Assembly: GCA_000310025.1 (NCBI GenBank)
Contig: FN649727.1
Coordinates: 8,122,835 to 8,186,834, forward strand
Length of the DNA: 64,000 nucleotides
Origin: Ectocarpus siliculosus
Lineage: Eukaryota; Sar; Phaeophyceae; Ectocarpales; Ectocarpaceae
Reading direction: 5' to 3'
A program made the position numbers and the translations under genes. This document shows, one piece after another, positions 13,801 through 61,762 of this stretch (its first letter is position 1; every line of letters starts with the position of its first letter). The notes under the pieces were generated by a model, which was given only the letters and a program-made list of their open reading frames with translations, was not told where the DNA came from and made no database searches.

Positions 13801-16800
13801 CCCGGTGATTGAACTACCGACCGGCGAAGACGGTGAAAGATGGGTCCTCGAGATGACCGCTGGGGGTGCGGGTGACGCCGTCATGGGCATCACCATAACC
13901 GACGTCGACGCTGCTGACAGGTCAGACTTGTGCACGTATTTTGAAGGAGTGGAAGCCAGAAACGCTCTGTCTCTGCGCCTCAAGTCGAACTTCGGCAATG
14001 TTTCCATTGTAGCTGACAGCGCGATCGGGGTGCGCGTGGTTGACGGGCCCACCGCTGGTCCCGGAGAGACCTTGTTTCTACAAGGTTCCGCAAAGTCTCT
14101 CCAAGCAGCGCTGGACAGGAGGGTAGTTCTCTATAGCGCCGCGGCTGATTTCTCCGGGCATGACGTTATCACAGTGGACGTCGACGATGGTGGAAACTGC
14201 GGTGCCGGCGGAACACACTCGACGACAGGAGTTCTCGAGATAGACGTAGCACCGTACGACCCACCTCTCCTAGTCGCGTTCGACACTTCCGTCGTGTCGG
14301 AAAATTCTGCTATCTTCACCCCTGAAGGCGCACCCTTGGCGTTGCCTGACTTGGCAGTGACGGGCGGGTCTGTGGGGGAGCTCTCAGCGGTGGAAGTAGT
14401 CATCCTCGCCAAGTCCGGTAACGTGTCGATACAGCAACCCGGCCTCGACAGCATCCAAGTTCTTGACAGTGGTGAGCTGACCGGCGATCGTCTTCGTGTA
14501 CGGGGCTCCCCTAAGGCGCTAACTACTGCTCTCGCGGGATTGCAATTCGAACCGCGGCCGTATTTCTTCGGATGCTGGGATCGCAACATGTCGTTCGCCG
14601 ACGATACTCCTGTACGGTCTTCAAGGCGGCAAGGAGTGTTAGCTCTGGCCCGCATCTACGCCATCGCCACCCCAGACGGCACAGGTGGGGACGTTGGCTG
14701 GGACGGTTTGAGCGTGAAGCCACACCCGTCAATGTCCATCGCGCAGTTGAAGGTTTCTGTGGGTTGGGTTAACGACCCCCCGACCGTGGAAGCGCCAGAT
14801 ACCGTGATTGTCGTGGCCTCGAAAGCAGTGATCGAGCCATCGCTTGTGCCAGGTATTCGAGTTGAGGATGCAGATGTGGAGGACGCCCCAGAAGGACTCG
14901 GGCGTTTGGACGTGAACGTGTCCACGTCAATGGGCAGTGCGCTGGCTGTGGACACCACCATCGCCTTGAAGAACGGGCTTCGAAACATGGGGCCCAGCGA
15001 GCAGCACGTACGCCTGCTTGGGCAACCGGAGTACGTCAATAACGTGCTAGCAACGTTGACGATTTCTCCAAACACTACGGACGGTACTACTTCGTTTGCG
15101 CCTGGAGATCGCATTGAAGAGATTTCGGTGGTCGTGAGCGATCTGGGTTTTTCTGGGAGTGGAGGGGAGCAAAGCGCGACCGCTTCGATCGTCGTCGAGG
15201 CAGGAAAGCCGGAGCTAGACAGCCAACTCGACCACGACGTTTTCGCGCTTGAGAAAATGCTTCCTCTTGTGAGCACCACGGAAGGAGCGGCAGTCGCCCT
15301 ACCGGGCCTTGAAGCAGCCTTTTCACACTCCAGTGTAGTCGACGACCAGCTGGCAGTCATCGTGTCGGCAAAGGAAGGCTATCTGTCGCTAGGACCCAGC
15401 AGCGCGGGGGTAGCGGAGGCTGCAGCGAAGGAGGACTGGGGATCAGCAGTTACATTGGTTCACTTCGTCGGCGGTGCTGAGCAGACGTTGCCAGAAGTGC
15501 AGGTGAGCGGTCAGGAAACCCAACATTGACCTTGTCGGCCAAGGTTGGTTGTCTGCGTTTAGTTGTAGCAAGTGAAGGTTGAGTATAGACGTGGCGTGAG
15601 CATGTTTTGGGTATGAACATGAGGCAGCACACGCCTAAGTGCTTGCAAGACAACGCCACTCAGAACAGCTCGCAGAGACTGTTTCTGGCTGTTGTACGAT
15701 CTGCCGCCTCGAATAGAAACCCGTGTTTTTCTTGTGAATCAGTGTACCCATCCACCTTTGCAAACATCCGATCAGCCTAGACCGCATCCTTCGGAACATT
15801 AACGAACTACAGGTGGTACGTACGACAGTCCCATGGCGATACGAAGTGCAGCAAATCGACGTTATCGCGCCGGGAGATCTTTCCACAGCCGACGTATACT
15901 TTTCCCTGCAAGGGCCAGACAACGACACCGGCACAGCCTTTGGTACGTACGTCAACGGGGGCGCCGGGTCGATGCCCGGGGTCTCCCTTTTGGACCCCAC
16001 GACTAGCGCCGACGATCTGGCAGCGGCGTTGGATTCGCTACCGTCTGCTGGCAAGGTGTCTGTCAGGCGCGTGCCGGCCACATCTGTTGAAGACACTTCT
16101 ATCGCCAGCCGACACCTCGTGACATTCCTGAGCCGCGGGGGCGACGTGCCACTGCTTATTGCAGAGAAATGGACGGTGAACGGAACTGGCATGGGCAATG
16201 ACACTGACACCACCCTTGACGGAAGGTGAGACTTTCGTCACGATGATATCAAAAGTCACCCTCCCGCGTTAACGCAACTACGACATGAGCCAAGAAGGGT
16301 GGGGAAATGCGCGTGGCAGGTTTCTGGGTGACTCTTGTTCTTAAAAGAACACACGTCGTTCCCAAAGATTGAAGCTTTGTCATATACGCCAAGCAGCTTG
16401 CTGACTATGTTCTTTTCAAATGCATCCCCTCTCCGCGTGTGAAACATTGACATTGAACATCGTCGCCCGTTCCGCGCCGGACGGTACTTGCGCGCGTTCA
16501 TCCTTGCAGCTCGACCAACATCAGTGTTGAAGTCAACGAGCTCACGGGAGGAACCTTAGCAAACGAAGTCCAAAGTGTAACCCTCCGAGCGGCGGGAGGC
16601 ACGGGCACAACCGGCACCTTCCGTCTGGAGTTCACAGATCCATCGGCCGATGGTGAAGAAAGAAGCCGCGTTGATGCTGATCACGATGGCAGGTACTGGA
16701 CATCTCAGCTTAGCGCCAACTCTTCGGCCGAGGAGGTAAGAGCTAGGGTTAGAATAAACACCCCGCGGCTTGTCATGTTTAGAACTCACGTGAGTGCTGT

Positions 16801-19800
16801 TGACACTCGCGGGCATGTTGTAGCTCACACAAATGCTCTACAATAGAACGCATTTGATGGCGCTATTAGAGAAGACACCTCAGCGGTGGGGGGGGGGGAT
16901 TGACGCTAGAAACGTCTTTTCATCTGTTTGGGTTCCATACTTTCCAAGCAGGCGCAGATGGAAGGGATGTAACGTTGTGAGATAGAATGCTACGTCAAAT
17001 TTCCACCCGCATGGTTCGTGATTTTCCAACCCTTCCTGTCGCTAGGAGACCTGTACAATTACGTTGCTCCCAAAATGCGGTTACGGACTCTCCTTGTTTC
17101 AAGCAAACTAAACTGACTGGCGAGGTGCGCATGGAATGTCCTCGGTCCGTATCGTCTTTGTTTGGACGATGCCTTTTGAGACAAATCCAGTGCCACTATT
17201 GTACTTCAAACAACCGCGGTAGTTTGTTTACGGGTGTCTCGGCATTGGCAATGAAGTCGTACCGAGATCGCACGGAAGTACGCACTCATGATCACAGTTT
17301 CTCAACATGTACCGTCTAGGTTGACACAGCATTGATGGTGACATGACCACTCGTGCTACGATCCAAATTTATGATGATTTCGTTTCGTGACAGGTGGCCC
17401 AAGCGCTCGCTCATCTGCCGGATATCGGGTACATTCGCGTCCTGAAGGCTTCCGATGGCACCAATCGAACCTATTCGACTCCATCTAACGGCACGGTTGA
17501 GACATACGCGGTTTGGCAATGGGAAGTTACATTCGTGACCAAAGGTGGCGACCTGCCCCTTATGGCCGCAGTCTGGTGGAACGGTAGGACATCGACTGGG
17601 CAAGACGGCTCCTTCGGGATGACGGGGCGATCGGCACGCCTCACTTGCGCGTCTTGCGAACCCTTCGAGAATAGTACTTGGTCTTCCACTGCCGAAGCCG
17701 TTGTGGGGAACCGAATAGAGGTGATTGAGACCTGCCCGCAACGTATTCAAACGTGAACCTCTCAACTGCAAATAGGCGCAGGGAGAATGCGATCTCCTAG
17801 AATGGTTTCGGGTGATGGTCGATTCCTCTGTCCGATTGTCGATAAAAACAGATATCGTGACGCACGCGGAGTATTAATTTTGGCGTTTAATGAACCGGAC
17901 TGTCATTTCCTGACTCGCCCCATAAAAGCGTGGAATTAATATACGATTTTCGTTCTATATTTTGACAGGTCCAAGAGGTCATCGCTGGATCGAGCCCTAT
18001 TTCGGGTACGTTCTCGTTGATCTACCCGGGCCATGCCTTCCAGGAACCGACCGAAACCGTCCCAATTTCTGTGCACGCTAGCGCGGGTGCGCTCGCCTCT
18101 GAATTGACCAGTCTGGATAGCCTAGGAATCAACAGCGTTCAGGTATCGAGGTCCGGCCCGTCCGCTGAAGGTGAACTGGCGTGGACGGTGTCATTCGTTT
18201 CGGGAAACGGAGACTTACCGGCAATGCAAGCAGTACATGACGGCGTTACCGGGACAGATGCGGTGGTGCGCGTTGCGGAGGTAGCCAATGGCGTGGCTCC
18301 TGTTCGAGGATCCGTTTCGCTGGTGGTGTCCGGGGTGCGAGGGGAGGTGAGAAAATGAAGCGCACGTGTGTGTTCTACGTGTGTATGGTTCCAGGATTGT
18401 ATGGTGCGGTCTTGCTGTTCATGTTGCATTCAAAAAGAAGGAAAAGGCGTGTGTGCAGCTACTGGCACGCGTCTCCATGCACACTGTTGCAATCAACGTT
18501 GTTTTTTGCGGATTTGAGGCTAGCAAACATCCCTTAGACCTTCGTGCCGGCTACTAGGAAGGAGTGTTTGTTGAGTACCTCAAGCTACATTAGTGCGTCC
18601 AAGGCAGACAAGACATGCCCCTCATACCACATGACCTCCCACCGGCCCCTCCCACAAACATGCCACAGGCTCCCCAGGCCACGGCACCTCTTGCCCATGA
18701 CGCCTCAGTCGACACAGTGATCGACGCGCTTTCCGAGCTTCAGCCCGTTCGAGCTGCTGGTTTGCTGGTGGAGGTCGAGCGGAAGGGACCTTTCGTGGGT
18801 GGCGGCTACAGCTGGTCAATCGCGCTCAACCCTTCGAAAGACGTCGACGAGATTGCAGCCCTAGCGCCGACCTTTCCCACGATAGGGGTGCAGCAAGCCA
18901 ATGTCACGGGCACCGGGGCAAGGGTCAGGGTCGAAAAGCGAGAAGCGCAGGAGGCACCACCGTTGGAACACTTGGTGTCCCTTGCCGCACCTTTGCCTAC
19001 CGAGATAGCCGAGGTGCAGGACATGATATGCTCCCTGGCGGGGATGACGCCATCTGAAGCTGCGCTAGCTGGAGCCTCATTCGTGGTCACGTTTCGTGGA
19101 GAGACAACCGAGGTGAGCGCCCATGCCAACAGAGTAGTTTTGGCCGTTTGAACGCGTACAGAAAATTTCAAGGTACTACAGGTCGCGTATTCTACCTGAG
19201 GTACGTGCAGTGAGCCCCGGATAACTCTTCGCATATTTGACCACCCGACAAGTTTGTTTTTTCTCCAGTCTATGGCAGCCCTTCCCAACTCCGTCGGATA
19301 ACGCTCTGCGGGAACTTAACGTGAGTACTGCTTCCTTCCAGTGTCTCAACGGCTGAAACACCCAATCAACTCCGGTTGGGTGGAACACCTTGTCTGTATG
19401 TGTCCGTCTACCGTGCTCGTGGTATCATCGACAGGCTATAGCAGCAGACACCGTATTGAACCCAGGCGGGCTTCCTTCCTGCGGCCGGTTTGCCACAGGC
19501 CCTTGCCAGGGCGATGGCACCACGCTCAAAGAGCGCCTGGAAGCACTCCTCACGGTAGGGGAGGTCAATGTCACCGGAATCACGAGCGATGGGATTGCTG
19601 GCGACGATGCGGAGGTCTGCGGGGTGGATTCGGTAAGAGGTTCATCGTGGTGCATTCGCGTATGCCGATGGCTTGCACCACTGCTGTACTTGTGATGGGA
19701 TATAGAGGGCTGTTCAACAAGTGGGCATCGCACGCAATACACTGCTTTATCCACATACCAAGCTTGTTGGTGGCCGTTGTGATGCCCTTCCACTTCCAGG

Positions 19801-22800
19801 TCTCGATCGCATGGCTCGATGGGATTATTAACGCTGGAGACCTACCTCTGATGTCTGCAGTGAGCTCCAACGCCACGCTTATGCATGTGGAGGTGGTGCG
19901 ATCTGTCAAGGGATCGGCTCCGTTCGTGAGAGAAATTCAGCGCATCGCCATCACCACCTCTAGCACCAACACCAGCCCCACAGCGGGAACGTTTAGCATT
20001 GTCGTCGGCCGCAACCAGACAAGCCCCCTAGCGTACAATATCAGCGAGTCCGACTTGGCTCTCTCCCTGGAGAAACTACCCGGTATTCGCAGCGAGGTCG
20101 GGGTCCACGGCAGCAGCACTGGAGATTCCCGGAGCTGGACGGTGACGTTCATGTCACCAGGACCACAGAGTCTGCTGGCTAGCCCTTGCGAAGAAGACGT
20201 GGCTGGCAATGGCACATCCCCGGACTGCCTTCTCGAGAATGCTTCGGTGAAGATCCGCCGCATTGTGCGCGGGAAGTCGCCAGCCAGTGGAACGTTTCGC
20301 TTGGGGCTGGTTCCGGCTGACGGCGAAGCGGGTAGCACCAACGTCGCCGGCACACACACCACCGGACCGATTCCCTTTGATGCAACGGCGGACGAACTAC
20401 ACGCGGCGGTGGTGGGTGTGTCTGGCGGTCAGGACGCAAAGGTGACCGTCGCACCGAACGCGCGGGCAGAGTACGGGTTTGAATGGGGAGTGACACTATT
20501 CGACAACGGGATTTCTTCAGTTGAACTGGTGGAAGTGGACTTCGACGACCCGGGACCATGGTGTGCCGATGGAGTCACGGGACCAGCGGCCGCCGGAACC
20601 TCTTGCGAGTTCCCTTTCGCGGCGGGTCAGGACGGGAGCGACGTGCATTTCTCGTGTGCGGGTGCCGTTGGGTCTAGCCCAGGGTGGTGCTCCACGATTC
20701 CGACGTTCAATGATAGCCAGGATTGGGGAGGGTGCGTGAGGTGTGAAGGGATTTCTCTGCTCTCACCCCCAACTATCCATGTCGCGTCGCTTCGGCGCAG
20801 CTTTCGCCTGAGAGGGGAACTCTCGCAGGTGTCTCAAGCGCTCTCAGAGATTGTTTACCACCCGCGTACTTTGTGGAACGCTTGGCTTGGGGGTCACGAC
20901 GAGGTATCCGCCTATTGGTACGACGAGAACAGTTTGGACGGAAGCGAGCCTTTGTCGGGAGCCAAGGCCAGGAGCGTTTCACAAGTGTTCGTCGCCCCGG
21001 TTAACGACCCTCCCACGATTGACCTAGGCAAGGAAGCCCGGCTCGTGCACGAAGGTGAGGAGCTGCTACTGGAAGACGCCGAAATTCTGGACCCCGACTT
21101 GGCGGATAGACCTCGGACTCCTGTACGGGTGGAGCTTGAAGCCATGTCCGGCACGCTGGCGTTTGGGGACAGCGCTGGCTTGACGTTCATGTCGGGGTCA
21201 CGGGGCCCACATTCCTCTCAGCGCCTGGTGGTCAAGGGGCCCCTTAAGACGGTGCAAAATGCGATGCGGCAGGTCTATTACCGGCCGCTGCCAGTTTTCC
21301 CAGCAGGGACGACGGCGGGAGTGAGAACAACATTGGAGGTGCAGAGAGTAGAGCTGACGGCACCGATCGTCCCGATGGTGCAGTCGGTAACGACGTCGAC
21401 GACTCAGGGATACATCGAAGGCAACTTCACCCTTTCGGTCGACTGCAGTGCCTTTTTCGAGGAGGTGGACAATATTTTCGCGGACGTCAACGCTGTCAAC
21501 CAAACTACCATCAACTCGTCAGAAACAACGGTTGAATCAACTCCGATCGCCGCGGACGCCCCGGCAAACGGGAATGGGTCGATGGAGACCGGGGTGAGGG
21601 AGCTTCTCTCAGAGTGCGCCAGCCTAGCATGGGATCGGGCAAACGTCTTGAAGGAGCTGTCGAACGCAACTTCCGTTTCGGGAAATTCTTCATCAGCGGG
21701 AAACTTCACCCGCGACGCTCTCCCTCATCGTGGAGCTACTGCGGTTGTGTCCAGGGGTGAGCCTGATGTACACGGCAGTGTGAGTTGGATGGTAACCATG
21801 ATGGATGTACCTCACTCCTTCCCGGCGCTGGGGGTTGGTGCGAACAACCTCACGGGATCAGGGGTAGGGCTCGACGGATCACAATACGTTTTCGACGGCA
21901 CCATCCTGTCGGGGACTCCATCAGTATCAGTCGATGTCGTGCAGGCCCAATCGCCGTTGTCCGGCCCCAACGGAACGTATACCTTGACGGCTACCCCCGG
22001 GAAAGCGACTACCAGACCTATACCCACGTCGGCTTCCGGGGATGAAGTGGCAGCAGCCCTCACCTCTCTAGCTGACGTAGGAGCGGTCCAAGTTTCAACA
22101 GGTCCCATTTTGGCCTCGCCGCCTGCGACACCTGCGTTGGGGCAATACTGGGAGATCACGTTCTTGCAGTCCGGGTCCCCAATACAAATCGGGGATCTGC
22201 CCCTCTTGGACGCCAGAGGGGTTGGGTTTGATGCCGAGGGAACAGCATTGCGTGTGTTCGAGGTGACAAAGGGGCGTGCACCCCGCGATTCAGTGACGAT
22301 CAGGGTGAACGACCTCGGAAATGTTGGCGAGGGGGGGTCTCTCGAAGCAACTGCGGCGTGGAACATCACTATCGTGCCCAAACACGTGGCTCCGGTAGTG
22401 CACCAAGTCGACAACGGAACGGTGCACCCGGAGGACTTCTTGCGAACTTTCGAGGGCACCGTGTTGCAACTCCCCAGCCTCCAGGTTTCACACTTTCCTG
22501 CGTTTGAAGCAGCTGGGGATGACTCTTCCAATGGCCTACAGTACCTTGTGCGCATCACCTGTTCCAGAGGAAGTGTCAAGCCCACCTCGTCTGCAGCGGG
22601 ACAGGACTTGGCTGTTACGATGCCATCCACTACCGCCACCCTGCTGAGCGGCAAGTTGCCGGACATCAACCGCGCATTGTCAAACCTCGGATACTATGCT
22701 CCCCGAAGGTATCGGGGGGTCGATGATGTGGAAGTAGCCGCGAGAGTAGCAGGGTTTGGCTTTGACGGTGGCTGGGGAGCCACCAAGCTGTACGCTTTCG

Positions 22801-25800: not shown

Positions 25801-28800
25801 CATCATGGTGGAAGAGGATGCAGGCCCAACCAGAATCCCAGGAGTTTTCGTGACCGACCCCGATGTGCACGAGACCAAACGAGGCACGATCGAGGTATGT
25901 CCGATCTCCACAACCGTGCGCAACCACAGAAAGAAGCAAATGCGAACACCCACAGTTACGGTAAAAGTTAGCGCGCAGGAGGATTGTCTTCCTCACTCAC
26001 CCATCGAAAAACGTACCTCCCGGGGGACCTAACCATTTCTTGTCCGGCAATGACGCCCCTCTATGGCTTTCACCGTCAGGTGCGCGCCTCTGTCGACCCA
26101 CCCGAAGCGGGAGGACTATCTTTGAGTCAACCTGGACCCAGGTTGTTCCCATCGCAGTTACCTGAACCCGAGAGTGCCCCCGTCCTCTCTCTGACCAGCG
26201 AGCTCGACCAGGCCAACACAATCCTCGAAGGGTTGCACTTCTCGCCGTCTGCCGACTTTTTCGGCTCTGTCGCGGTGAACTTCGAAGTCAACGACGGGGG
26301 CGCATCTGGTCTAGGGGGGGTGTTGTCGGCTAGTTCCTCCATGTCTCTCGAAGTTACTCCAGTTAACGACCCGCCGACTGTGGCAGCGCCTAGAGAACGC
26401 CGTCGCTCGGGCGAGCGAGGACCGGTTCCCATTGAGGGGGTAGAAATCAACGACGTCGACGGAATCACCGGGGAGACTTTATCGGTCTCAATCACCGCAG
26501 AAACCGGATCAATAACTGTGGATCATTCGCCGGAAACCTTGATTTCAATAATCTGGGGAGAAGATGATGCGACCGTTACTGGGGTGTCCGTCACGGGTCT
26601 GTTGCCGGACGTCAGGAAAGCTCTCTCCTACGTTTGGTTTGTTCTTCCAAGCGAAGGCTGGGAAGGTGGAAGCGTTGTCACGTTTTCCGCCGAAGACGGC
26701 GAGGGTGCCACGGGATCGGCGGAGTGTGTGGTCGTGGTGTCAGACCCGGGCGTTCCGCCGATTATCACCGCCACAAACGATACGTTCGTCGCAGGCCAGG
26801 GGATGCAGACCTCTCTGGCGGGATTAAGTGTTACCGACTCTGTAGAAGACGCTGCCATCTTGGGTGGCTTATCTTCTCCGGTCTTCACCGTGTTGGTCTC
26901 GGCGGATATGGGAGGGGTTGGGCTCTTTCCTGTTCCAGCGGGCTTATCTACTGTGCCCGGAAGCGACACAGCGCTCAAGGCAGCGGCGGCAATCACCGCC
27001 GGCGAGGGTCTACGAGGCATTTTTGGGACACCGAGACCGACGCTATCGTTCCGTGGGACTCTTTCTGCAGTGAACGCGGCGCTTGAGGCCGTAGTCTACT
27101 TGAGCGCCAACGGTTCGACAGCGCTCGGGAACAAATCCGTGACGGTGGAGGTGGCTAGGCAAGGGAGAACCACCAACTACTCCGCCCGCCACGAGCTGAC
27201 AGTGGGAGTGCTGCCCGTGAATCAGCCTCCGGAAATCACGTGGAATGCGACTCACCCGAACCTGGAGTCGCCAGAGGTTGGCGGGTTCTCTCTGCGTGGG
27301 CTCGGGTTTGTCGATAATGACCTTGCTAAAGGGGGAACTCTAGGCGTGGAGTTGGAGGTCCTCGCAGAAGGTGACGGTCTTGTTGTCCGAACTGACGGCA
27401 GGGGACTAGAATTTTTCCGAGGGTCTGCCAATGGTCTGCCGAGCCCGGTCCTCGCTTTCCGCGGCAACGCCACAGTCATTGCAAGCGCTATTTCCGCGTC
27501 GGCCATCATCCTGAAAAATCCAGGACTATCGAGAGCTCTCGTTCCTGCTGTGAGGGTAGCCGTAGAGGATGATGATGGCGGTATAAGCTCACAGATTATC
27601 GAAGTCTACGGTAGCCACGTAAACTCGCCTCCTCAAGTCACCATCACGAATCCGCAGCAGATGTCCTTGAAGGAAGGGGGTGTCTTGGAAAGAGTGGGGG
27701 AGATGGCTGGTATAGAGGTACACGATGCTGACGTGGAGGATTCGACTCAGGGGTTTTTGGAGGTGAACGTTAGCACCAGCCACCGGGCCGTACTGGAAGT
27801 ACAGAGCATCACGACATCAGCAACAAGCATTCATCCCGTGCAGACCATTACTACCCGTTCCACATACAACGATGGCTACTCGACGGTGGAAGGGATGTTC
27901 AACCTCACGATGGATCTAACGGGCCTCTGCGAAGACTGTGGAGTGGAGGAAACCAGGCCGATTTGGCACGATGCTGTCGGAAACGAAGAGGATATTCACG
28001 TGGGGCTAGGCTCTGGCAGTGAGCCCGGGGAATCCGTCCAAGCCAAACTCGAGGCCCTCCCGTCCTTGCAGGCGCTCGGGGTCTCCGTACATTGTCAACG
28101 GGCTACCGGCCTTGGTTCGGAGGGCGGACGCGAGTGGCGGGTGACCTTCCTCGACGCTCCTGCCTCCCTGCCGATGATGAAAGCCATCGGCGATTCGCTA
28201 GCGGGAAATGATCCTTTCATCGAGGTGGCGTACGCTGTGAAGGGAAACTCTCTCTCGGGCAGCATCGCCCTGTCGCTTGGAGGCTATCAAACGGAGATGA
28301 TTTCGTACGATGCAGAGGCTCAACATGTGGCTGCCAAGCTTGAAGAGTTGCCTTCGGTCACGGCAGTGGGTGTAACAATGCGTCACCCGGTCGATCCTCA
28401 AGGCGGACGGCAATGGACGGTGACATTCTTTGACGCGTTAGAGGCGGGCGGCGATGTACCGCTCATGGAGGTGGACGGACGGGCACTCGGTGGCCGCGGA
28501 GCCGCCGTACGAGTGGTCGAATCGGTGCGTGGGATCGGTACGGCGGAGGTGTGGGAGGTGGAAACGTCAGCGGCACACCAGAACTTGGTCGTGTTCATCA
28601 CCTTGACAGGCGCCCTCCGAGCCAAGGGTCACTTTACCCTTGGGCTCGACTACGGCGGGCGACAAGCGTGGACGAGACCGATACATCCTCGAGCGGTTGG
28701 ACCTGTAAGCGACGAGGATGGAGGTTTTTGGTCTTTCGGGGGCGTTCCAGGAAAAAAACGCGGCGAATCTGTTGAAGCTCGTCTTCTGTCATTAGAAAAT

Positions 28801-31800
28801 TGGGGCGAGCTCGGGCCAGCTGCGCGGGTAACGGTCAAGCGAGTCGATTCTGCGAACGGCAACGTTGCAACGTGGACTATCACCTTCTTCGGCACTCCTC
28901 AAGACCTTGATCCGCCGACCATTCAAAGCACCAACCTCGCGGGGGGCGCCGTAGTTTCTGCCGAGGTGGCTTCGACACACAACCGCGTCCAGGGATTCTT
29001 CTATCTCTCGTACGGAGGCGAGGTCACACCACCTCTGGCGCACGATAGCTCGGGAACCGAGATCGCTACTGCACTCAATGCCCTCGAATCCCTGCATTCG
29101 TCGGATTCAGGAATTGGGGTAGTTGAGGCCACAAGACTGCAGAGTACGAGTTTGGAAGGAGGCCAGCGATGGTCCATCGCCTTCCTGAGTGACCCCGAAG
29201 TCCCATCAAACCTCTCCGCAACGGGAACTTCGACGACCGGACTCTCTGGAGGAAGCGCCCGGGCGTCGGCGACGCTTGTGCGCCATGGCGGTAGGGGGGC
29301 AATTCTACGGCTCGTCGATCTAGGCGGGGCGGCGTTTGGCCTGCCGGGATACACTACGGGGGAGCGTCTCGCTTTACGGGGTACGCCGGCTGCAATCACG
29401 ACCATGCTCGCAAGCCTGTCGTATTCGCCAAGGCATGGCTGGAACGGTGGCGCTGACATTCTGCTTCGGGCTTACGATGGCGGCTTCACCGGTGCGGGCG
29501 GAGCGCAATCCGGGTGGGGAAAGGTCTCCGCGACCGTTGAGGCGGTAAATAACCCGCCCGAACTACTATGGTGTGGGAGCGTGCTAAACTCGGGGGGTGC
29601 GATCATTGATGGTGTGGACGAGGATGCTCCTTTTAGGTTGGTGGACTTCGATTGTGGGGGGGGGGGTACTCCCGCAACGCCCGTCTTATTTGATCATACC
29701 GATCTAGGAGGTCCTGACGCGGGCTTGACTGTGCACGATCCCGACGGAGAAGGGTCGAGGATGCAGGTGAGACGACACGTCAATGACTGCCGAAGCTTTG
29801 CGTTGACCATGAGATGTCATGGCCCAACCCGTTGCTCTTTTCGAGGCAGAATACCACGAGCACGGCGGTACGTACTCGCTGCTTGGTGCATACTGTTTTG
29901 TATTTTCACAATAGGTCGAAAACCCAGTCGTTCCTTTGACGTTGCTGGTCCTGAGAAGCGCGAAACATAACCGTTTCAGCTCACGCTCGGAACTATTTTG
30001 CAGGTGGAAATTTCAGCCAAGCACGGTTTCGTTACACTGACCGGAGAAATTGCGGGCATGGTATCCGATACCGTGGTCGGGACACCCGCGACCGTGTCGG
30101 GCACCTCCTGGAAAGTGAACGCTGGACTCCGCTCGCTAGTGTACGTGTCTGCCGAGGACTGGCACGGCTGGGATAGAATCAGCATCACTGTCACCGATCT
30201 TGGGGACGACAGCCTCCAAATGCCTGCGGACCCCATGACCTACTACCTCCACGTGTCCGTGGCAGCGGTAAACGACGCTCCAGTCTTTACGGCCACGGGC
30301 TTCGAGGAGGTTACGCTTACGGACGGAGAATCCTCTCCTGGCGACGAGCAGACCTCGGCGCTCCTCGTCTTAACCCAAGAAGATACTGTCCGGATAATTT
30401 CCAGTGTGTCTATCTGGGATGTTGACACCAAGGCGGAAGGGGCGCTGCTTAACCGACCTGACGGTTTTTTCGGGACGGTCAGCACTGACGGTATGGGTAA
30501 CGGCGCGGAACTTCTTGCTGTGGAGCCAAAGGTCGCCCTCTCGTTGTCATGTACGTATGGGAGTCTCCGGTTGGGCGGAGGGCACGGGGGCTTAGAGGTC
30601 GTGGAGGGTGACCTCGACCGTGGTGGGCAGATCTTGTCCGTGACCGGTGCACTCTCCAACATCAATGCCGCGCTGATGGAAGGGATTGTTTTTACGCCGA
30701 GCTCCGACTGGAACGGGATCGACGTGGTGGAGGTAAGGGGGCGTCGTCGTTAAAAGCACGTAACGAATGACAATTTTCCTGAGAAACGAGGCGACTCTCT
30801 GCGAAACCTTGATCGCCTCATGCGTGTCTTGGCGCACGTGCACGATTGGATAGTCTGCACGAATTCGCAACGTATTTTGCTTGGTGTGGGCGGGGTCAAG
30901 CTCAAGCGGCCCATGGTCACCCAAGTATTAGTTTGTCGAGTTTTACATTGGTCCAGCCACGGAACTAACCTTTCGCTCAACAGCGTACACAATACCACAG
31001 GAGCGCCAACCCATGCCGTGGCAGCAAATCACTGCCGCCTAAACTTGGGTACCTCTTTCTGTCCGCCGTTTTCGTTTTGTTCGTAGGCGATCGTTGACGA
31101 CCGCGGAAATGGCGGGAAAACGCTCCAGGGCGCGAACGGCTCCCAGACTTCCAAGCTCCTGCTGGCGGTCGAAGTCAAACCTGTCAATGATCCGCCGACG
31201 TTTACGGTCCCGATCACAGACGCTTCCTCTCCTTCTTCTTCTTCGTACCTCATCGCGGAAGAGGACCGCGTCGGCGTTGTGGGGATTGATCACGTCGGTT
31301 GGTTAGACACGAACATCCTCGACTCGACCACCATCTCAGCTTCCAGCATCGTGCTCGAAGACGCCGATACGGTCTATGCGCCCGGTGGAACCACCCCCCA
31401 ACCTCCGCAGAGCCGGTGGACGCACGAGTCGTCGACGTCACCGCCTGCTTCGGCCAACGACACCGTGGAGGTTACGGTTCAAGTCTCGCACGGTGGCGTT
31501 CTCCTGGCTGGTGCGCCGTCCGAAGTATCGCTTGTGGTCGTTTCTTCAGCCCAGACATCAGGCGTGAATTCTTCAGAATTTGCTGCTGAAATGCGACTAA
31601 GTGGGCCGTTGTGGGCGGTGGCAGACGCTTTGAAGGGAATCCTCTACAGGACCGATCTCAACTGGAACAGCTGGGTCGGGTCGGGTGGAAATCAGGTTCA
31701 GCCTGTCGTAACTGAGGTAGGTGCATAGTCAGTGAAAGGCTTCGTCTTTAGCGCTGACCACAACGAGCTCCATGTTTCAACATATTTCGACGCTGAATCA

Positions 31801-37800: not shown

Positions 37801-40800
37801 CGATGAAGGTTCTTCCGGACAAGGTTCGATCGGTGCCGCCACAAGCGCCGCAGCAGGCCAGTCAGCCCAGCTTGGTGCTGCAACCGGGTACACCGGAGTC
37901 TCTTCACGAGGGGCAGCTACCGCACCAATCACGGTCCTGGCCGTCAACGACCCACCCAGTATCCAGCTGCCCTACGCAGAGGACGGCAACGTTATCTTGA
38001 GGATAGATGAGGGAGAAGAGCGACGTCTGGACGGGGCGAGGTGGCGGGGCTCTTTCGCCGCTGCCGTGCAGGCGTCAGCGTACTTCCCGAACCGGAAAGG
38101 GATCGAGCTGTGGACGAGCCAGGGGATGTTTCCTGGGAGAGATGCGGGGAGATGGGGGAGAGGGTCCGAGCTGGAGTGGAGAGAGGCGTTAGTGTTGGAC
38201 CTAAACGAGGGACTTGGAGACGGATCCCCGAGGGATTTCGTGGTGTGGGGCGGCTATTTGTACTTCCAGGTGGGTGTTGCGTGTGAAGATATGGGGTGAA
38301 ATGGTGTTAGGTAGACCAATGCGCCCGGGTGTCGTTCGCACAGGCCTCATTGCAAGACGCAAGAAACTATGTTCCGGATGGATGGTCCGACTCAATCGGA
38401 TGGCAGCCAGCCGTCGTTCCGCACCGACAAGCACCGACAAGCAACTTGTTGCCCGGCTCTGTTTGTGGTACTTGCCAAAACCATATTTCAATTCGACGCA
38501 AGACATATCGTGCCAAGTGGACGATGTTCGACGCCAATCTTCTCATGGTTTGACCTCCTCTCATTTATGTACCAACCCTTGCCAAATCCCTCAGGCAACC
38601 GATGCAGAACACGGTGCGGAGTTGTGGCGCACTGACGGTACGGGCGCTGGCACGGTTCTTGTGAAAGACATATATCCCGGCGAGAGAAGCGGGTCCCCCA
38701 CTTCTTTGACGGCGTTCGGAGACTACCTTTATTTCCAGGTACTACGCAACAGGGGCGTAGCAGCAGAGCAGCGGGTGCATTGGGTGGGGCTGAAAACACG
38801 CCGACCGTGCTACACCTGCTGTTAAAGAGTGCCTTGATGCGGGTCTTTCATTTCATGGGCTGAGCGGCGTTGTTTTGTTTCATTTTTTCGACCATTCGCG
38901 CCAAAGATTACTGACAGACACTTGTGCGGGTGGAAACGGAATGGGTGAAGGATATTTTCGATATCGGTGGATTCCATCAGCGAGAAGCTGTGGCGCTCAT
39001 GTACCTAGCCTATGCCTAGGTGCAAGGATCGAAAAGCAGGATCCTCACTATTGCCGGTAGTAGAGCGTATTTATTTCAAAGAGCATCAGGATCAACGAAA
39101 ACATTCCACGTTTGTGCTTCTAAATGCACAGTTTTTGTTTCAAACCAGTTGCCGCGTTCCTTGGTCCTCGTAGTGTTGTCCCGGGATGAAGCAACGCCTT
39201 TCCCCGCCTCTGCATTAACTCATCCCTGAAAAAATAGGCAAATGGCTTGGACCTAGGATGGATGCTGCCGTCTGACTACCAAGACCTGTGCGGAGGGTTC
39301 CGACAAAGCTCCTTCGATTCTGCCGTGTTCTTCGCCGTGTCAGAGGTAGGTACCGTACCTCATTCCGCCTGTACAGCAGAGGAATAAAGCTTCTTCTCTC
39401 GCGACCACCTGGAATTTTACGCTTCAATGGATATCTTCGTTTTGCGGCGAAGATTTGACACCGGTGGTCATGCATGATATGATTTTCCTCGGCGGAGTAG
39501 ATAGACGTCACTTTAACGTATATAACGTTGCACACCGGCAGTGCTCCTTACACATACGCAGCACCATCGAACGTCTCCGTTGAGCTATCGAGGTCGATTT
39601 GGGTTGCACAGCCAACGGCTGAATCGTTGGCCTTGCATAGCTGCCCATCGTCTTGTTGGTGCCAGGCCGGTTTACGTGTGTGGCTTGTGTACGGTAACCA
39701 GCCCCCTACATGGCGTATCGATTGCAGGAGAACAAGTGGGATCCAGATACTCGCTACGACTGCCCCGACGGCTTCCACCATGCTAGCACCGCTCAGGTAC
39801 GCAGCCCATGCTGAATTGAACATGTGTTTGTGGCGAAACCGGAACGCACTGCATGTCGTTAGCTCAGTTTTCTCGACGGCACGAGAATAGTTTGCACCAC
39901 ACCTTTCTAGGTGGATGCGAGACGGAAACGGGGCTACGTGTAGCGTACCGTTGTAAAGGCGGCGCACCACGGACGTTGTCAACGAGCGAAAGGGTAACAA
40001 ACCAAACGGATTGCATGTGTTCGTGGGGGCGTCAAGCTGAGCTTGACTAATCCTATCGCGGACGAAGCAAGGTTCTCTGCGCGGTGCGCACCATTCTCCC
40101 GAAATACTTCCTACCAGGGCTTCGCGTTGTTCACGGGGACCCAAGACGATGACCGCGAAGCCGCGTCCATGGAGCCTACGGTGTACTTCGGACAGTGCGG
40201 GTGGGATGGCTACACCTGGGGTGGACGCTCTCGGATGTACTTCCGCTTCTCTGACAGTGGAAGGTACGCACCGCATCGTATCTCGTCGCGTACCATTGCA
40301 TCACAAGTCCATTGCTGGTGCAACTACTGCCGTACTGTTAAGTCACGACGGAAACTCGGGTCGATCAATGCGTACATCACGAACGATTCCTTTGTAGATT
40401 AAGCAACCTCGGGCCTATTGCGTACCACGGTGTTGGTGTGACCACCGTACCCTTACACACTCCCCGCCCCACCTCTTCGTTTTTCCCAGGACTGGTGCCT
40501 ACAAGCACGCCGGCCGTCGAGACTCCTACCGGCCAGGCATTGACAACGACGACATCGGTGACCCCGCCGCGGGTTTCGCCGGCATCGTCTGCGTCGACAG
40601 CGAGCAAGCTGCATCGTATCTTTCTACCACAACGGCTGCCACCACGAGAGGCTCACTGGCACCCGGAGCGTGTCGATGGGGTGAACGAGCGAACACTGGC
40701 TGCTATTCACGCGCCGGAGTAGAGCTCTGGCGTACGGACGGCAGTGCCAAGGGCACGCGTCGGGTGGACGATTTGCGGTTTGGTGTATCAGGATCGTTCC

Positions 40801-43132
40801 CGAGCTATCTGACGGTCTTCGACGGAGCTCTGTTCTACGCCGCCCACACGGACTTAACGGGCATGGAGATGTTCCGCAGTGATGGCACATCGGGCGGGGC
40901 TAGTATCGTCGAGGTGCAGTGGAGATGGAGACAAGCGGATTTGCTGCCATGTGATTGTTGCATCGAATGCAACTTGTTTTGCCTCTGCTCTCTTTATTGA
41001 CTCTCTCGCCGTGATCAGAGTCACTGAGGAACATGCGTACATCGTGACTTTGTTTGCCTGGTACTTGATACATACTTTCATCACAAAATCGAAATCAATT
41101 GAATTGCAGCCGTTTGAAACCTCCACCCCTCTTCGTTTAGGACATCGTCCGAGGGCACCAAGGGTCCAACCCAATGGACCTTGTGGCCGCCAGCGGGACG
41201 GCGCTGTTCTTCACCGCGGACGACGGTATTGCCGGCCGGGAGCTGTGGCGCAGCGATGGCGCTCTCGGCTTCCTAGACGCACGGCCCGAACTAGGCTTCA
41301 GGGTCACCGGTGGATCCGGCACACGCCGGGTGAAGGACGCACGCCCGGGCAAGCTAGGCTCGGAGCCCCTGCACCTCACGTGGGAGCCAACGCGGTCGGT
41401 ATTGTTCTTCTCGGCGGATGACGGGTTTTCCGGGCGAGAGCTGTGGTCCAGCGATGGCACCACCGCGGGGACTGCGATGGTGGCGAACATCTGTCCTGGC
41501 GTGCGAGGGTCGGGACCGTCGCACCTTATCGCGTGGGGTGGGGCCGTCTACTTCCAAGCGGACGACTGCAGCACCGGGCCGGAGCTGTGGGTGTCGGACG
41601 GCAGTGAGGGAGGTACGCTGTTGCTGGCCGATGTCCGAGCTGGCTCGGCAGGGGCGTTCCCCTCCTACCTCACGCTGCTAGAGCCAACAGCCGGTGGGGG
41701 AGAGAGGCTGTTCTTCTTGGCCAATGGCGGTGGCTACGACGCCGCCGCAGCAACGGGGCTGGCGCAAGGGTGGGGAGGAGCGCAGCTGTGGATGACGGAT
41801 GGGACGGGGAAGGGGACGCAACGGGCGTTCGGGCAGAAAACGGCAGGTGATTTTATGCCCGACCGGGTTTCGCTGGATGCGGGAAGGCCACCGCGCATGG
41901 CAGCATTCAATGGCGCGCTATATCTTCCCGCTACCGAAGACCCATTGGTGGCCGTTGAAACCTTGTTGGGGATGAACGAGGCTTCGGAGGAGGGGGTGTC
42001 GCAGGTGAGCAATAAAGAAATTGACGGAATCACCGATGATAGGATCGTACACATGCGGTCGGTAGCTGTTGGCAATGCCGTATCCAGCTACTCACAACAG
42101 GTTTTATGCCAAGGCATGGATAGACGGTTGCGATGAACCTCTACATACTTAGCCTGCGGCATATTCTTTGGTCTGTTGCGTATATGATAACAGGCAATGG
42201 TTATCTACGACGTCGACGGCGGCCCGGGGAGTGTTCTGAGCGTCATTATCGAGTGCGACGAAGGAGAGCTAATCATGGGTGACGGTTCCGGCCTGGTGTT
42301 CGACAACTCCAACGAGGCAACGATCGACGACCAACCCGACGACCAGTCATCACCGCCCCCACCGTCCGGCGTTCTACGATTCAACGGCACCGCCGCCGAC
42401 ATTAACCGCGCCATGCGGGACCTGCGATATAGAGGCCTCCCCGGACGAGCTGGTCAAGATGTCATCCGGATAACCGTCACCGACGACCCGGATCCGTGCC
42501 CGGGCGACTACAACGTCTCTTCGCCCGTCTTCAACAACGCAACTACTTCTGCGGGAGTCAACGCGACAGCAAGAGGAGTAGATCGGGCGCCGTGCGCGCT
42601 CGGCGGGCCGCAAGCAACGGAGGGGCGGATCCAGGTGTACCTATCTGCTGTCAACCGGCCCCCTTCGGTTAACGTCCCTCAAGGAACCCTTAGAACAGTG
42701 GTCGACGCCGCCCAGGCGACAGGTGTTGGAGCCGGTGGGGCTCTATCGGTAGAAGATCCCGATGTGCGAGAGACGGCGTACTACAGTGCTGGCGGTTTGA
42801 GAGTAGAAGGGCCGGTCAGTGTTGCCGTAGTTTGTGCGAACGGTCGCCTTAGCTTGGGAGCTAGAGGGGGATTGTCTTTCTCTGAGGGGGAAGGCATCTC
42901 CGACCCAGTCTTGCGGTTTGGTGGAGCGATTGACGATGCCAACAGAGCCCTGGCCACGTTGAGTTATCATTGTTCGTCTTTGTACGATTGCGTGGCCGGA
43001 ACGCATGAGATTTCGGTCACGGTTGACGACAACGGCTTCACGGGGAAGGGGGGGGCGTTGTCGGCCAACGCGACCTTTAGTGTGACAGTAGACGCAGCCG
43101 TGGAAGAGTTGCCAGGGATTAACAGATACTAG
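5704..43132 (+). CDS. Giant secreted multidomain repeat protein (about 8,750 residues, about 38 exons)
   Basis: Exons joined by frame and phase: 5704-5778, 6131-7144, 8197-8479, 8782-8951, 9239-9748, 9903-10118, 10548-10664, 11014-11520, 11732-12562, 12884-15502, 15813-16225, 16510-16735, 17394-17720, 17969-18346, 18669-19112, 19162-19172 (tentative), 19269-19320, 19435-19632, 19800-22997, 23325-25574, 25697-25894, 26080-29766, 30004-30732, 31087-31716, 31970-32560, 32952-33206, 33425-33702, 34075-34291, 34387-34863 (start uncertain), 35316-35696, 35981-38269, 38595-38738, 39238-39345, 39728-39796, 40118-40263, 40490-40913, 41141-42004, 42194-43132. Order: signal peptide; cadherin-like repeats; GTF modules and an FN2-like module; more cadherin-like repeats with two further GTF blocks; ELW propeller; last repeats; stop. 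Acidic DxD and ED-T sites suggest Ca2+ binding. With no membrane segment, an extracellular matrix or adhesion role is inferred. Most introns are phase 0. I see no other genes inside the introns. A neighbouring annotation could split it into several models. Confidence 0.8.
6131..15502 (+). other. First cadherin-like / tandem-95-type repeat array (exons 2-10)
   Basis: These nine exons code residues about 26-2114. The repeating unit is about 100-120 residues. It has a linker such as VNDPP, an acidic ED-T-L or EDE site, a D-x-D pair, a V-V-A-x-x-G strand, an F-x-G-x-x-x-x-V-N-x-A-L-x-x-L-x-Y segment, a W-x-G-x-D turn and a DDxGNxGxGG end. Linkers are seen near 6510, 6907, 8368, 9356, 9984, 11826, 12212, 12964, 13789, 14257 and 14769. 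This resembles bacterial tandem-95/VCBS and Cadherin_5-type repeats more than classical cadherins. Several repeats are split by introns at or near the L-x-Y segment. Confidence 0.8.
7774..7836. repeat. (CT)n microsatellite in intron 2 of the giant gene
   Basis: This is an almost pure CT dinucleotide run with one interruption. It lies inside the 1052-base second intron (7145-8196) and makes long spurious Ser-Leu open frames. No coding exon is seen in the rest of the intron. Confidence 0.95.
15813..20540 (+). other. GTF-module block 1 of the giant protein (exons 11-18, first part)
   Basis: Here the cadherin-like pattern stops and a different unit of about 100 residues takes over. It reads G-T-F-x-L, then A-x-A-x-x-V/L-x-x-A-L-x-x-L-x-x-I/V-x-V-x-V-x-R, then W-x-V-T-F, then G-D-L-P-L-M, then a V-x-G-T/A-V-R-V strand. 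Good examples are TFVTKGGDLPLM (near 17530-17570), SGNGDLPAMQAV (near 18200-18235) and AGDLPLMSAV (near 19830-19860). I count about seven copies, covering residues about 2115-3045. I have seen similar units only in large stramenopile and alveolate extracellular proteins and cannot name a family with certainty. Confidence 0.7.
19162..19172 (+). other. Tentative 11-base micro-exon of the giant gene
   Basis: The exon ending at 19112 is phase 0, but the next good exon (19269-19320) is open only if entered with two bases carried over. An 11-base exon with acceptor GCGTACAG and donor GTACTA supplies exactly that and codes K-I-S-S across the junction. Other pairings I tried gave a stop. A larger unrecognised exon or a sequence error could explain it as well. 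Confidence 0.3.
20555..20748 (+). other. Fibronectin type II-like module within the giant protein
   Basis: Inside exon 18, residues about 3049-3112 read WCADGVTG..., SCEFPF, HFSCAG, GWCSTIP and DWGGCVRC. The order C-x-F-P-F ... F-x-C ... W-C-S-T ... D-W-G-x-C matches the fibronectin type II fold, including the FPF and WCST signatures and four paired cysteines. It sits at the end of GTF block 1, just before the cadherin-like pattern resumes. In animals such modules bind collagen or gelatin; the ligand here is unknown. Confidence 0.75.
21340..22290 (+). other. GTF-module block 2 (two units) inserted in a cadherin-like repeat
   Basis: The host repeat runs to the L-x-Y segment (MRQVYYRPLPVF). 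It is then interrupted at VELTAPIVP by two GTF-type units (GNFTLSVDCSAFF...; NGTYTLTATPG...WEITF...GDLPLL). It resumes as DSVTIRVNDLGNVGEGG, the usual last strand. Residues are about 3310-3627. Five asparagines in an Asn-Ser-Thr-rich stretch near 21500-21690 are possible N-glycosylation sites. Confidence 0.65.
27800..29280 (+). other. GTF-module block 3 (four units) inserted in a cadherin-like repeat
   Basis: The host repeat starts normally with GIEVHDADVEDSTQGFLEVN and breaks off after its next strand. Four GTF units follow (REWRVTF, RQWTVTFFD, ATWTITFFG and QRWSIAFLS mark their central strands). The host repeat then resumes at LALRGTPAAITTMLASLSYS and ends with DGGFTGAGG. Residues are about 5252-5746, all in the single exon 21. 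Confidence 0.7.
30004..38100 (+). other. Third cadherin-like repeat array (exons 22-31)
   Basis: Exons 30004-30732 through 35981-38269 carry about ten more repeats. Linkers lie near 30268, 31183, 32044, 32990, 34091, 35373, 36064, 36592, 37300 and 37944. Some units have long acidic or Ser/Pro insertions (near 31370-31450 and 37190-37250). The exon at 34387-34863 has a weakly supported acceptor and its first 60 codons do not fit the repeat. It may really start later. Phase-2 introns occur after 33702 only; the other junctions are phase 0. Confidence 0.7.
38041..42004 (+). other. ELW-DGT repeat domain, probable beta-propeller (exons 31-37)
   Basis: Eight motifs of the type E-L-W-x-T/S-D-G-T/S occur: a weak one (IELWTSQG, near 38105) and then units at about 38617, 40720, 40867, 41238, 41440, 41578 and 41785. 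Each is followed by T-x-L-V-x-D-I-x-P-G-x-x-G-S-x-P-x-x-L-T and a G-x-L-Y-F-Q strand. The block closes with GALYLPATED near 41915. ELWxxDGT repeats are known from bacterial and stramenopile secreted proteins and are expected to fold as propeller blades. The domain is framed on both sides by pieces of one cadherin-like repeat. Confidence 0.75.
39238..40715 (+). other. Cysteine/aromatic-rich module inserted between two ELW blades
   Basis: Exons 39238-39345, 39728-39796, 40118-40263 and the first half of 40490-40913 code about 165 residues unlike the ELW unit. Features are DLCGGFRQ, WDPDTRYDCPDGFHHASTA, FGQCGWDGYTWGG, RMYFRFSDSG, AYKHAGRRD and FAGIVCVD. The blade strand GDYLYFQ lies directly before it and its ELW partner (GVELWRTDGS) directly after. 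I recall similar CGW-GYT/FRFSDS modules in stramenopile predicted proteins but cannot name the family. Confidence 0.65.
42194..43132 (+). other. Last exon of the giant gene: two cadherin-like repeats and stop
   Basis: The exon opens with MVIYDVDGGPGSVLSVII, the D-x-D strand that normally follows an EG-E-x-x-L-G segment, so it completes the repeat begun before the ELW domain. A second complete repeat follows the linker VNRPPSV. The reading ends VDAAVEELPGINRY then TAG (43130-43132), exactly where the next linker would start. No membrane or GPI-like segment is present. A further exon cannot be excluded. Confidence 0.7.
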
Positions 43133-61299: not shown

Positions 61300-61762
61300 N
61301 NNNNNNNNNNNNNNNNNNNNNNNNNNNNNNNNNNNNNNNNNNNNNNNNNNNNNNNNNNNNNNNNNNNNNNNNNNNNNNNNNNNNNNNNNNNNNNNNNNNT
61401 AGAGGAGCACTTGCTTCGCCGGTTTCCATCCCAGCGTCTGCGGTCAGACGATAAAAACTCCAACTGAAGGCTTTTGCGATTTTTGGTAGTACCCGGGTTT
61501 CCCGGCCCAACCCTGTGGCCCCCATCGCCTCGCTTACCCCCCCCACCCCACGCAACGAGCTTCTCAGGATCCAGACCGTCCAGCCGCATGCTGTCGACGA
61601 ACTGGTCGCGGTTGTTGTCGAACAGAAGTTTCGCGCAGTCCTTGGCGTGCAGCGGGTCGTTGGGGGGCAGGGGACTCGTGGCGTTGGGCTGGTACGTCCT
61701 GATGATGTAGCCCCCCTGCCTAATCTCTAGTTCGCAACGAACGCAAGGGAGCTTCCGCGCGA
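61094..61762. repeat. Inverted duplication flanking the assembly gap
   Basis: The 206 bases at 61094-61299 recur in reverse complement at 61557-61762 with only a few mismatches. Between them lie the 100-N gap and about 157 bases of unique sequence. The right copy therefore carries the third coding block of the neighbouring gene on the opposite strand and continues past the point where the left copy meets the gap. Confidence 0.9.
61300..61399. other. Assembly gap of exactly 100 N
   Basis: A run of 100 N is the usual placeholder for a gap of unknown size. The order and distance of the sequence on either side are not certain. Confidence 0.99.

What the first reader, a model, noticed from the sequence alone, without database searches (positions are those of the whole stretch)
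37950..42290. Three-level nested domain insertion at the C-terminal end of the giant protein
A cadherin-like repeat starts (VNDPPSIQLPYAEDG, then RIDEGEERRLDG) and is broken exactly before its D-x-D strand. The missing strand (YDVDGGPGSVLSVII) appears at 42200, after the whole ELW-DGT domain. Inside that ELW domain, one blade is split in turn: its strand GDYLYFQ lies at 38718 and its partner GVELWRTDGS at 40717, with the cysteine-rich CGWDGYT/FRFSDSG module between. Seen directly: the split halves and their order. Inferred: that each inserted piece folds inside a loop of its host. Stacked insertions of three unrelated domains in one chain are rare.
Basis: partly seen in the sequence, partly recalled or inferred. 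Interest (0 to 1): 0.85.

Follow-up and report, generated by a model that had tools for sequence, protein, structure and literature searches.

The report
Propeller nested inside a cadherin-like repeat
Near the end of a giant eukaryotic protein, a domain predicted to be a nine-bladed wheel, carrying a small cysteine-rich domain in one of its own loops, sits in the middle of a cadherin-like repeat; three other repeats of the same protein are interrupted as well, so the chain may be a repeat fibre with side branches.

Summary
One 37-exon gene model (nt 6039-43132, 8,796 aa, no internal stop) joins them. A profile from 33 other repeats of the protein matches the left stub (positions 8-43) and right part (45-134) as complementary pieces of one repeat: joined 69.4 bits against 44.3 for the right part alone, 0 of 500 in each control, and the best of 961 cut pairs is the proposed junction. 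The 663-aa insert is an ELWxxDGT domain; a bacterial relative folds (AlphaFold2, pTM 0.85) with what I read as nine blades. The hairpin of its third unit holds a 178-aa, six-cysteine module without relatives in the collections searched. New here: 4 of 40 repeats are interrupted, two of them inside single exons, by 325-1,018 aa. In one, AlphaFold2 gives both host halves high confidence across the insert, though the whole model is weak (pTM 0.41). Nested insertion is known (integrins, RNA polymerase), so this is a new variant of a known kind; an adhesive or matrix function is inferred.

The parts
37943..38035 (+). Left part of the interrupted cadherin-like repeat (VNDPPSIQ...RIDEGEERRLDG), inside exon 35981-38269
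   Evidence: Profile positions 8-43 of the repeat HMM, 19.5 bits alone
38036..38269 (+). Start of the ELW domain (unit 1, KGIELWTSQG...GGYLYFQ); no intron between it and the host repeat
   Evidence: Weak ELW motif hit (-3.0 bits) followed by a 12.3-bit hit to the rest of the unit; exon and donor site
38595..38738 (+). Exon B: ELW unit 2 and first strand of unit 3 (GDYLYFQ)
   Evidence: ELW unit HMM 74.6 bits; GT-AG, phase 0
39238..39345 (+). Exon C: last residues of the unit 3 strand (AN) and start of the Cys-rich module (GLDLGW...)
   Evidence: Gene finder; coding log-odds 15.9 nats
39728..39796 (+). Exon D: module (ENKWDPDTRYDCPDGFHHASTAQ)
   Evidence: Added by hand, skipped by the gene finder; log-odds 6.8 nats. 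Least certain exon
40118..40263 (+). Exon E: module core (QCGWDGYTWGG...YFRFSDSG)
   Evidence: Gene finder; log-odds 24.0 nats
40490..40913 (+). Exon F: end of the module, then the ELW unit 3 partner strand GVELWRTDGS (40716-40745) and start of unit 4; no intron at this module edge
   Evidence: ELW unit HMM 44.7 bits from profile position 9; joined unit 66.0 bits
41141..42004 (+). Exon G: end of ELW unit 4 to unit 8 and a degenerate ninth hairpin (RMAAFNGALYLPATEDPLVAVETLL)
   Evidence: TIGR04534 E 1.9e-56, 187.9 bits, cut-off 65; ninth hairpin placed on bacterial blade 9 by MAFFT --add
42194..43132 (+). Exon H: right part of the interrupted cadherin-like repeat (42194 to about 42660), one further repeat, stop codon
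   Evidence: Profile positions 45-134, 44.3 bits alone; next repeat 77.4 bits. No Pfam or NCBIfam hit for this exon
27577..29559 (+). Second interrupted cadherin-like repeat, within one exon: 492-aa insert (junction 27879|29356)
   Evidence: Joined 88.0 bits versus 33.2 and 48.9 for the halves; 0 of 500 in each shuffle control
20964..22412 (+). Third interrupted cadherin-like repeat, within one exon: 325-aa insert (junction 21308|22284)
   Evidence: Joined 93.0 bits versus 65.9 and 17.4; 0 of 500 in each control; AlphaFold2 model
15266..20924 (+). Fourth interrupted cadherin-like repeat: 1018-aa insert over several exons (junction 15451|20805); insert holds other beta repeats and a fibronectin type II-like stretch
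   Evidence: Joined 45.5 bits versus 12.6 and 23.3; 0 of 500 in each control; fn2 E 0.016, 15.6 bits, below the Pfam cut-off of 22.2

Best explanation
One gene encodes a giant fibre-like protein made mostly of about 40 cadherin-like beta-sandwich repeats. In the next-to-last repeat, the loop between the strand ending RRLDG and the strand with YDVDG holds a complete ELWxxDGT domain, predicted to be a nine-bladed beta-propeller; in that propeller, the hairpin of the third unit holds a six-cysteine module. Shown: the split sequences, their order, one reading frame, complementary profile coverage, and three further interrupted repeats. Supported by prediction: the ELW domain as one propeller, and a host repeat folding across an insert. 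Inferred: the propeller stands beside the fibre on two chain connections rather than in line with it and shows the cysteine-rich module on one face as a binding head, so the protein works as a branched extracellular adhesion or matrix protein, much as an integrin carries inserted domains on its propeller and hybrid domain. The architecture is likely (about 0.85); the adhesive function is a guess from domain types (about 0.35).
For: Gene model without internal stop, 31 of 36 introns phase 0. Join tests and cut-point grid (with an earlier, shorter profile 52.6 joined against 45.3). ELW family membership. AlphaFold2 of the bacterial L007 domain, pLDDT 85.7, pTM 0.85, whose strand list I read as nine blades with the N-terminal strand completing the last; first PDB match by E-value is the sortilin Vps10p domain, TMq 0.56, a ten-bladed propeller by recall. 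The window ELW part without the module can be laid over all nine hairpins of L007. In 306 bacterial hairpins measured the longest loop is 12 residues, so the 178-aa module is an addition. Interruption 2, contiguous in DNA: host residues 11-120 and 451-480 of 500 have block-mean pLDDT 85-96.
Against: No cDNA. The interruption-2 model as a whole is weak (mean pLDDT 56.6, pTM 0.41; 249 of 500 residues under 50), its alignment ties the host halves together by homology, and no contacts or PAE were available. Foldseek on it found no close fold: 3 hits with E under 0.001, TM by query 0.15-0.16. The nine-hairpin laying-over is a forced MAFFT addition; the profile search in the same call gave two local pieces out of register, not one end-to-end match. 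Bacterial arrays vary: of 30 reading frames, 3 have nine hairpins, 2 eight, 10 have 17-18 and 15 have other counts. The N-terminal closing strand of bacterial ELW domains has no clear counterpart in the window. No Pfam family was found for the 1,220-aa spliced tail and no NCBIfam family for exon H. No transmembrane segment stands out (highest 19-residue hydropathy mean 1.82) and no signal peptide was established, so secretion is unproven.
Confidence: 0.6

Rival explanations
1. The insertion is real in sequence but the host repeat no longer folds as one domain: the left stub and right part are remnants, and the ELW propeller sits in line between two damaged ends.
Against: The two parts meet in register (profile 43 then 45); three other interrupted repeats keep both halves, and one is predicted with confident halves across its insert.
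Confidence: 0.2
2. Gene-model or splicing artefact: two genes, or transcripts in which the ELW part or the module is skipped.
For: Exons inferred from one genome sequence; exon D is weak.
Against: Host left half and ELW unit 1 lie in one exon, and module end and ELW unit 3 lie in one exon. Two other interruptions lie wholly inside single exons. No phase-0 GT lies within 30 nt of 38035; the nearest are 38066 and 37991. Skipping exons C-E (108+69+146 = 323 nt) would break the frame.
Confidence: 0.07
3. The ELW part is two shorter arrays (units 1-2 and 3-8) joined by the module as a linker, so only one level of insertion exists.
For: The module divides the units 2 to 6; the gain on joining unit 3 is only about 11 bits; unit 1 is weakly matched; bacterial arrays vary in number.
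Against: The break falls inside a unit, between its two hairpin strands, and the total (8 plus a degenerate ninth) equals the nine of the L007-type domain.
Confidence: 0.13
4. The inserts came by exon shuffling between phase-0 introns.
For: 31 of 36 introns are phase 0; introns sit at the right edge of the ELW insert and two codons from the left edge of the module. The module carries three internal introns in 534 nt against 0.66 expected (Poisson P about 0.03).
Against: The other edge of each of these two inserts has no intron, and interruptions 2 and 3 have no intron at either edge.
Confidence: 0.25

Closest known systems
Integrin alpha I domain inserted in the alpha-subunit beta-propeller (PMC10659397, passages seen)
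   Same: An extra domain inserted in an extracellular beta-propeller
   Different: There the insert lies between blades 2 and 3 of a seven-bladed propeller; here the module lies within the hairpin of one unit, shows no vWFA match, and the propeller is itself inserted in a beta-sandwich
Integrin beta subunit, betaA domain inserted in the hybrid domain (PMC12383024, passages seen)
   Same: An inserted domain held by two peptide connections, which there transmit movement
   Different: Unrelated domains; no evidence for allostery here
Nested insertions catalogued from ECOD, including six levels in cyanobacterial RpoC2 (PMC13114784, abstract, passages and section 2.3 seen)
   Same: A1-B1-C-B2-A2 nesting
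   Different: That survey reports inserts smaller than hosts in 77.0% of events; here all four outer inserts (325-1018 aa) exceed their hosts (about 140-200 aa), and the hosts are repeats of one tandem array
Bacterial ELWxxDGT repeat proteins (TIGR04534)
   Same: Repeat family; domain of the L007 type
   Different: No bacterial hairpin of 306 measured holds a domain; 2 of 30 ELW reading frames have any cadherin-like hit, and neither shows a repeat split around the array (in L017 a partial hit, positions 112-154, 11.9 bits, follows the array with no left half listed before it)
Bacterial tandem-95 / Big_9 / Cadherin_5 repeats
   Same: Sequence family of the host repeats
   Different: Four repeats of this array are interrupted by other domains

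Membership tests
ELWxxDGT repeat protein (TIGR04534) | Score above the curated cut-off of 65 bits | tested here: met
   187.9 bits for exon G alone
ELWxxDGT repeat protein (TIGR04534) | Complete array of nine hairpins with closing N-terminal strand, as in L007 | tested here: inconclusive
   Eight ELW hairpins plus a degenerate ninth can be laid over L007 by forced alignment; closing strand not evident; profile search gave two local pieces
Big_9 / Cadherin_5 / tandem-95 cadherin-like repeats (host array) | Big_9 score above 23.6 bits | tested here: met
   26.6 bits for exon A, from intact repeats
Big_9 / Cadherin_5 / tandem-95 cadherin-like repeats (host array) | tandem-95 (NF012211) above 90 bits; Cadherin_5 above 26.5 bits | tested here: not met
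   37.7 and 17.6 bits for exon A
Big_9 / Cadherin_5 / tandem-95 cadherin-like repeats (host array) | The interrupted repeat itself matches these library families | tested here: not met
   No Pfam family for the spliced tail, no NCBIfam family for exon H; it matches only the profile made from this protein
Big_9 / Cadherin_5 / tandem-95 cadherin-like repeats (host array) | Calcium binding between repeats | not testable with these tools
   No structure of the array
Nested domain insertion (A1-B1-C-B2-A2) | Each host's two parts cover complementary stretches of one domain profile | tested here: met
   43|45 for the host repeat; ELW unit 3 joined 66.0 bits
Nested domain insertion (A1-B1-C-B2-A2) | The two parts of each host pack together in space | tested here: inconclusive
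   Not modelled for this region; indirect support from interruption 2
Integrin-type inserted (vWFA/I) domain | Inserted domain is a vWFA domain with a metal site | tested here: not met
   No Pfam, NCBIfam domain or PDB sequence match for the module; fold not tested

The most novel reading that the evidence does not exclude
In this protein the tandem cadherin-like array acts as a general acceptor: large domains or whole domain arrays sit in loops of four single repeats, at three or more different loops, without loss of either half of the repeat, giving a branched polypeptide fibre with side heads, one of which carries a head of its own. (Some of the four may descend from one event by duplication.)
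Probability: 0.4. Interest if true: 0.65.

Novelty: new variant of a known kind. Interest (0 to 1): 0.52.

Why it matters
Domain insertion is usually a smaller domain entering a larger host (77.0% of events in PMC13114784). Here one protein shows four interruptions of one repeat family by inserts about two to seven times longer than the host, one nested to three levels. That makes a natural test set for which loops of a beta-sandwich tolerate insertion, and a possible way to build side-branched extracellular fibres. It also shows a bacterial-type ELWxxDGT domain in an intron-bearing gene and predicts that an ELWxxDGT domain, for which exon G gave no PDB match by sequence, is a nine-bladed propeller. 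Nine-bladed propellers as such are already described (listing, e.g. PMC4125824; listing only).

Tried and rejected
Module relatives: none in viral contigs, plasmids, phages, PDB sequences, PHROGs, Pfam or NCBIfam beyond the flanking ELW piece; in 13 bacterial genomes that hold ELW loci, 2 of 13 gave only chance-level matches (E 0.126 and 0.635); no second copy showed in the window. No eukaryotic genome collection was on hand, so the module may well have eukaryotic relatives. A C-type-lectin-like fold for the module came to mind from its cysteine motifs; that is recall and no call supports it.

Foldseek on the interruption-2 model gave 3 hits with E under 0.001 (B4GALNT1 chains, TM by query 0.15-0.16) and weak cohesin-like hits, so the exact fold of the host is not settled. 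A first alignment with extra repeats pulled host tails into the insert and was replaced by one without them.

Limits of the controls. The repeat profile (33 rows) leaves out the four interrupted repeats, except that about 19 residues at the end of interruption 2's host enter through the flank of its neighbour. The rows of the ELW alignment were cut by me to about nine hairpins each, which favours that count.

Two separate genes were rejected because key boundaries lie inside exons. Exon shuffling as sole mechanism was rejected because interruptions 2 and 3 lie inside single exons. The organism was not identified: no genome is held for the window; a brown alga or related stramenopile is an impression from recall only.

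Literature searched: 'ELWxxDGT' 0 papers; brown alga / giant protein / beta-propeller / cadherin-like, at least three of four, 0 papers; Ectocarpus and cadherin 14 papers, listing only; nested domain / domain insertion / inserted domain, two of three, 45 papers, 15 listed; domain insertion with propeller, blade, cadherin 5 papers, 4 listed, 3 of them on integrins; nine-bladed and propeller 17 papers, 15 listed.

Full report
What is there. The stretch 37950-42290 is the C-terminal part of one large gene on the + strand. A codon-composition gene finder produced a single chain of exons with GT-AG introns from about 5.8 kb to the stop at 43132 without an internal stop; it was trained on long reading frames of this gene and on introns I had drawn by hand in this region, so it supports consistency rather than giving independent proof. 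After adding one short exon by hand and dropping a 9-nt first exon, the model has 37 exons and 8,796 residues; 31 of 36 introns are phase 0. The true N-terminus is uncertain. In the region of the finding the exons are 35981-38269, 38595-38738, 39238-39345, 39728-39796, 40118-40263, 40490-40913, 41141-42004 and 42194-43132.

Host repeat. Iterated searches found 43 hits of one cadherin-like repeat profile in the protein, which I count as 40 repeats because three pairs of hits are halves of single repeats. A longer profile was built from 33 repeats without the four interrupted ones, apart from a 19-residue overlap at the tail of one. The left stub (aa 7780-7821, ending RRLDG at nt 38035) matches positions 8-43 and the right part (from aa 8485, nt 42194) positions 45-134. 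Joined they score 69.4 bits, against 44.3 for the right part and 19.5 for the left. 0 of 500 shuffled stubs and 0 of 500 random pieces of the insert do as well, and of 961 combinations of cut points the best is exactly the proposed junction. With one more residue on the left the joined score is 70.0, and 0 of 500 shuffled right parts reach it. An earlier, shorter profile gave the same picture with a smaller gain, 52.6 against 45.3. Library families do not recognise the interrupted repeat itself.

The ELW insert. Exon 41141-42004 alone scores 187.9 bits against NCBIfam TIGR04534, cut-off 65. A unit profile trained on bacterial sequences finds the units from 38096 to 41827, unit 3 lacking its first positions and units 1 and 8 weakly matched. 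With the module taken out, the 485-residue ELW part can be laid over all nine hairpins of a bacterial domain (L007): eight ELW hairpins and a degenerate ninth. This is a forced MAFFT addition; a profile search in the same call gave two strong local pieces (198.2 and 136.7 bits) out of register, as repeats allow. In 30 bacterial reading frames with ELW hits from 22 loci, 3 have nine hairpins, 2 eight, 10 have 17-18 and 15 other counts, some of them fragments. AlphaFold2 on L007 with 18 other bacterial segments, cut by me to about nine hairpins, gave pLDDT 85.7 and pTM 0.85; I read its strand list as nine four-stranded blades with the N-terminal strand completing the last. The first Foldseek match in the PDB by E-value is the Vps10p domain of sortilin, TMq 0.56.

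The inner module. Between the two hairpin strands of unit 3 (GDYLYFQAN and GVELWRTDGS) lie about 178 residues with six cysteines. Joining the strands raises the unit from 55.2 to 66.0 bits, 0 of 500 in each shuffle control. The corresponding loop is at most 12 residues in 306 bacterial hairpins measured; wider spacings between some bacterial hairpins (80-127 residues, and one of 326) look like missed units and were not examined one by one. No relative of the module was found in any collection searched; none of these holds eukaryotic genomes. It has three internal introns in 534 nt where 0.66 are expected from the rest of the gene (Poisson P about 0.03), a weak hint of separate origin.

Beyond the finding. 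The same test shows three more interrupted cadherin-like repeats: after nt 15451 by 1018 aa, after nt 21308 by 325 aa, and after nt 27879 by 492 aa. Joined scores are 45.5, 93.0 and 88.0 bits, each well above either half, with 0 of 500 in every shuffle control. The second and third lie wholly within single exons, so they cannot be splicing artefacts. The breaks fall at profile positions 83|98, 119|125, 70|94 and, for the finding, 43|45. The first and third may share one variable loop, so at least three loops are involved, and some interruptions may be duplicates of one event. The 325-aa case could be folded: with 22 other repeats as alignment, residues 11-120 and 451-480 of 500 have block-mean pLDDT 85-96, while 249 of 500 residues are below 50 and the whole model is weak (pTM 0.41). 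That agrees with a host folding across its insert, but the alignment itself ties the halves together, and no contact map was available.

How it most likely works. The repeats form an extended stalk. An inserted domain is held to the stalk by two chains that leave and re-enter the same repeat, so it stands beside the stalk. The propeller carries the cysteine-rich module in a hairpin, at one face. The likeliest use is a side head for binding, in an extracellular adhesive or matrix protein. The geometry follows if the halves pack; the function is inferred from domain types only. No transmembrane segment stands out, no signal peptide was established, and the strongest next coding signal downstream is on the other strand.

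Comparison. Integrins are the closest in kind: an I domain inserted between propeller blades 2 and 3 (PMC10659397, passages) and a betaA domain inserted in the hybrid domain, joined by two strands that pass on movement (PMC12383024, passages). Nested insertion is documented, to six levels in cyanobacterial RpoC2; insertions occur in 20% of multidomain proteins and are smaller than hosts in 77.0% of events (PMC13114784, abstract and section 2.3). What is unusual here is the repeated use of one tandem repeat family as host and the size of the inserts relative to the host.

Verdict. It is a new variant of a known kind, of moderate interest, raised by the three further interruptions.

Noticed in passing
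15266-20924, 20964-22412, 27577-29559: Three further cadherin-like repeats of the same protein are interrupted by 325-1018 aa, largely by another beta-repeat family; the parts of it that were scanned had no convincing Pfam or NCBIfam match
   Followed up: yes
20550-20783: Fibronectin type II-like stretch with cysteines inside the first insert; Pfam fn2 E 0.016, below cut-off
   Followed up: partly
1869-2342 and 5053-5208, minus strand: Coding signals of a C-5 cytosine methyltransferase-like gene: Pfam DNA_methylase E 2.5e-07 for the larger piece, no hit for the smaller; a TRDMT1/DNMT2 label would be recall
   Followed up: partly
61094-61299 and 61557-61762, with an N run at 61300-61399: A 206-nt inverted repeat, 99% complementary, whose left arm ends at a 100-N gap; it may be an assembly artefact
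   Followed up: no
L007:8700-9983: This bacterial ELWxxDGT domain is predicted as what I read as a nine-bladed propeller; exon G of the window had no PDB match by sequence
   Followed up: partly
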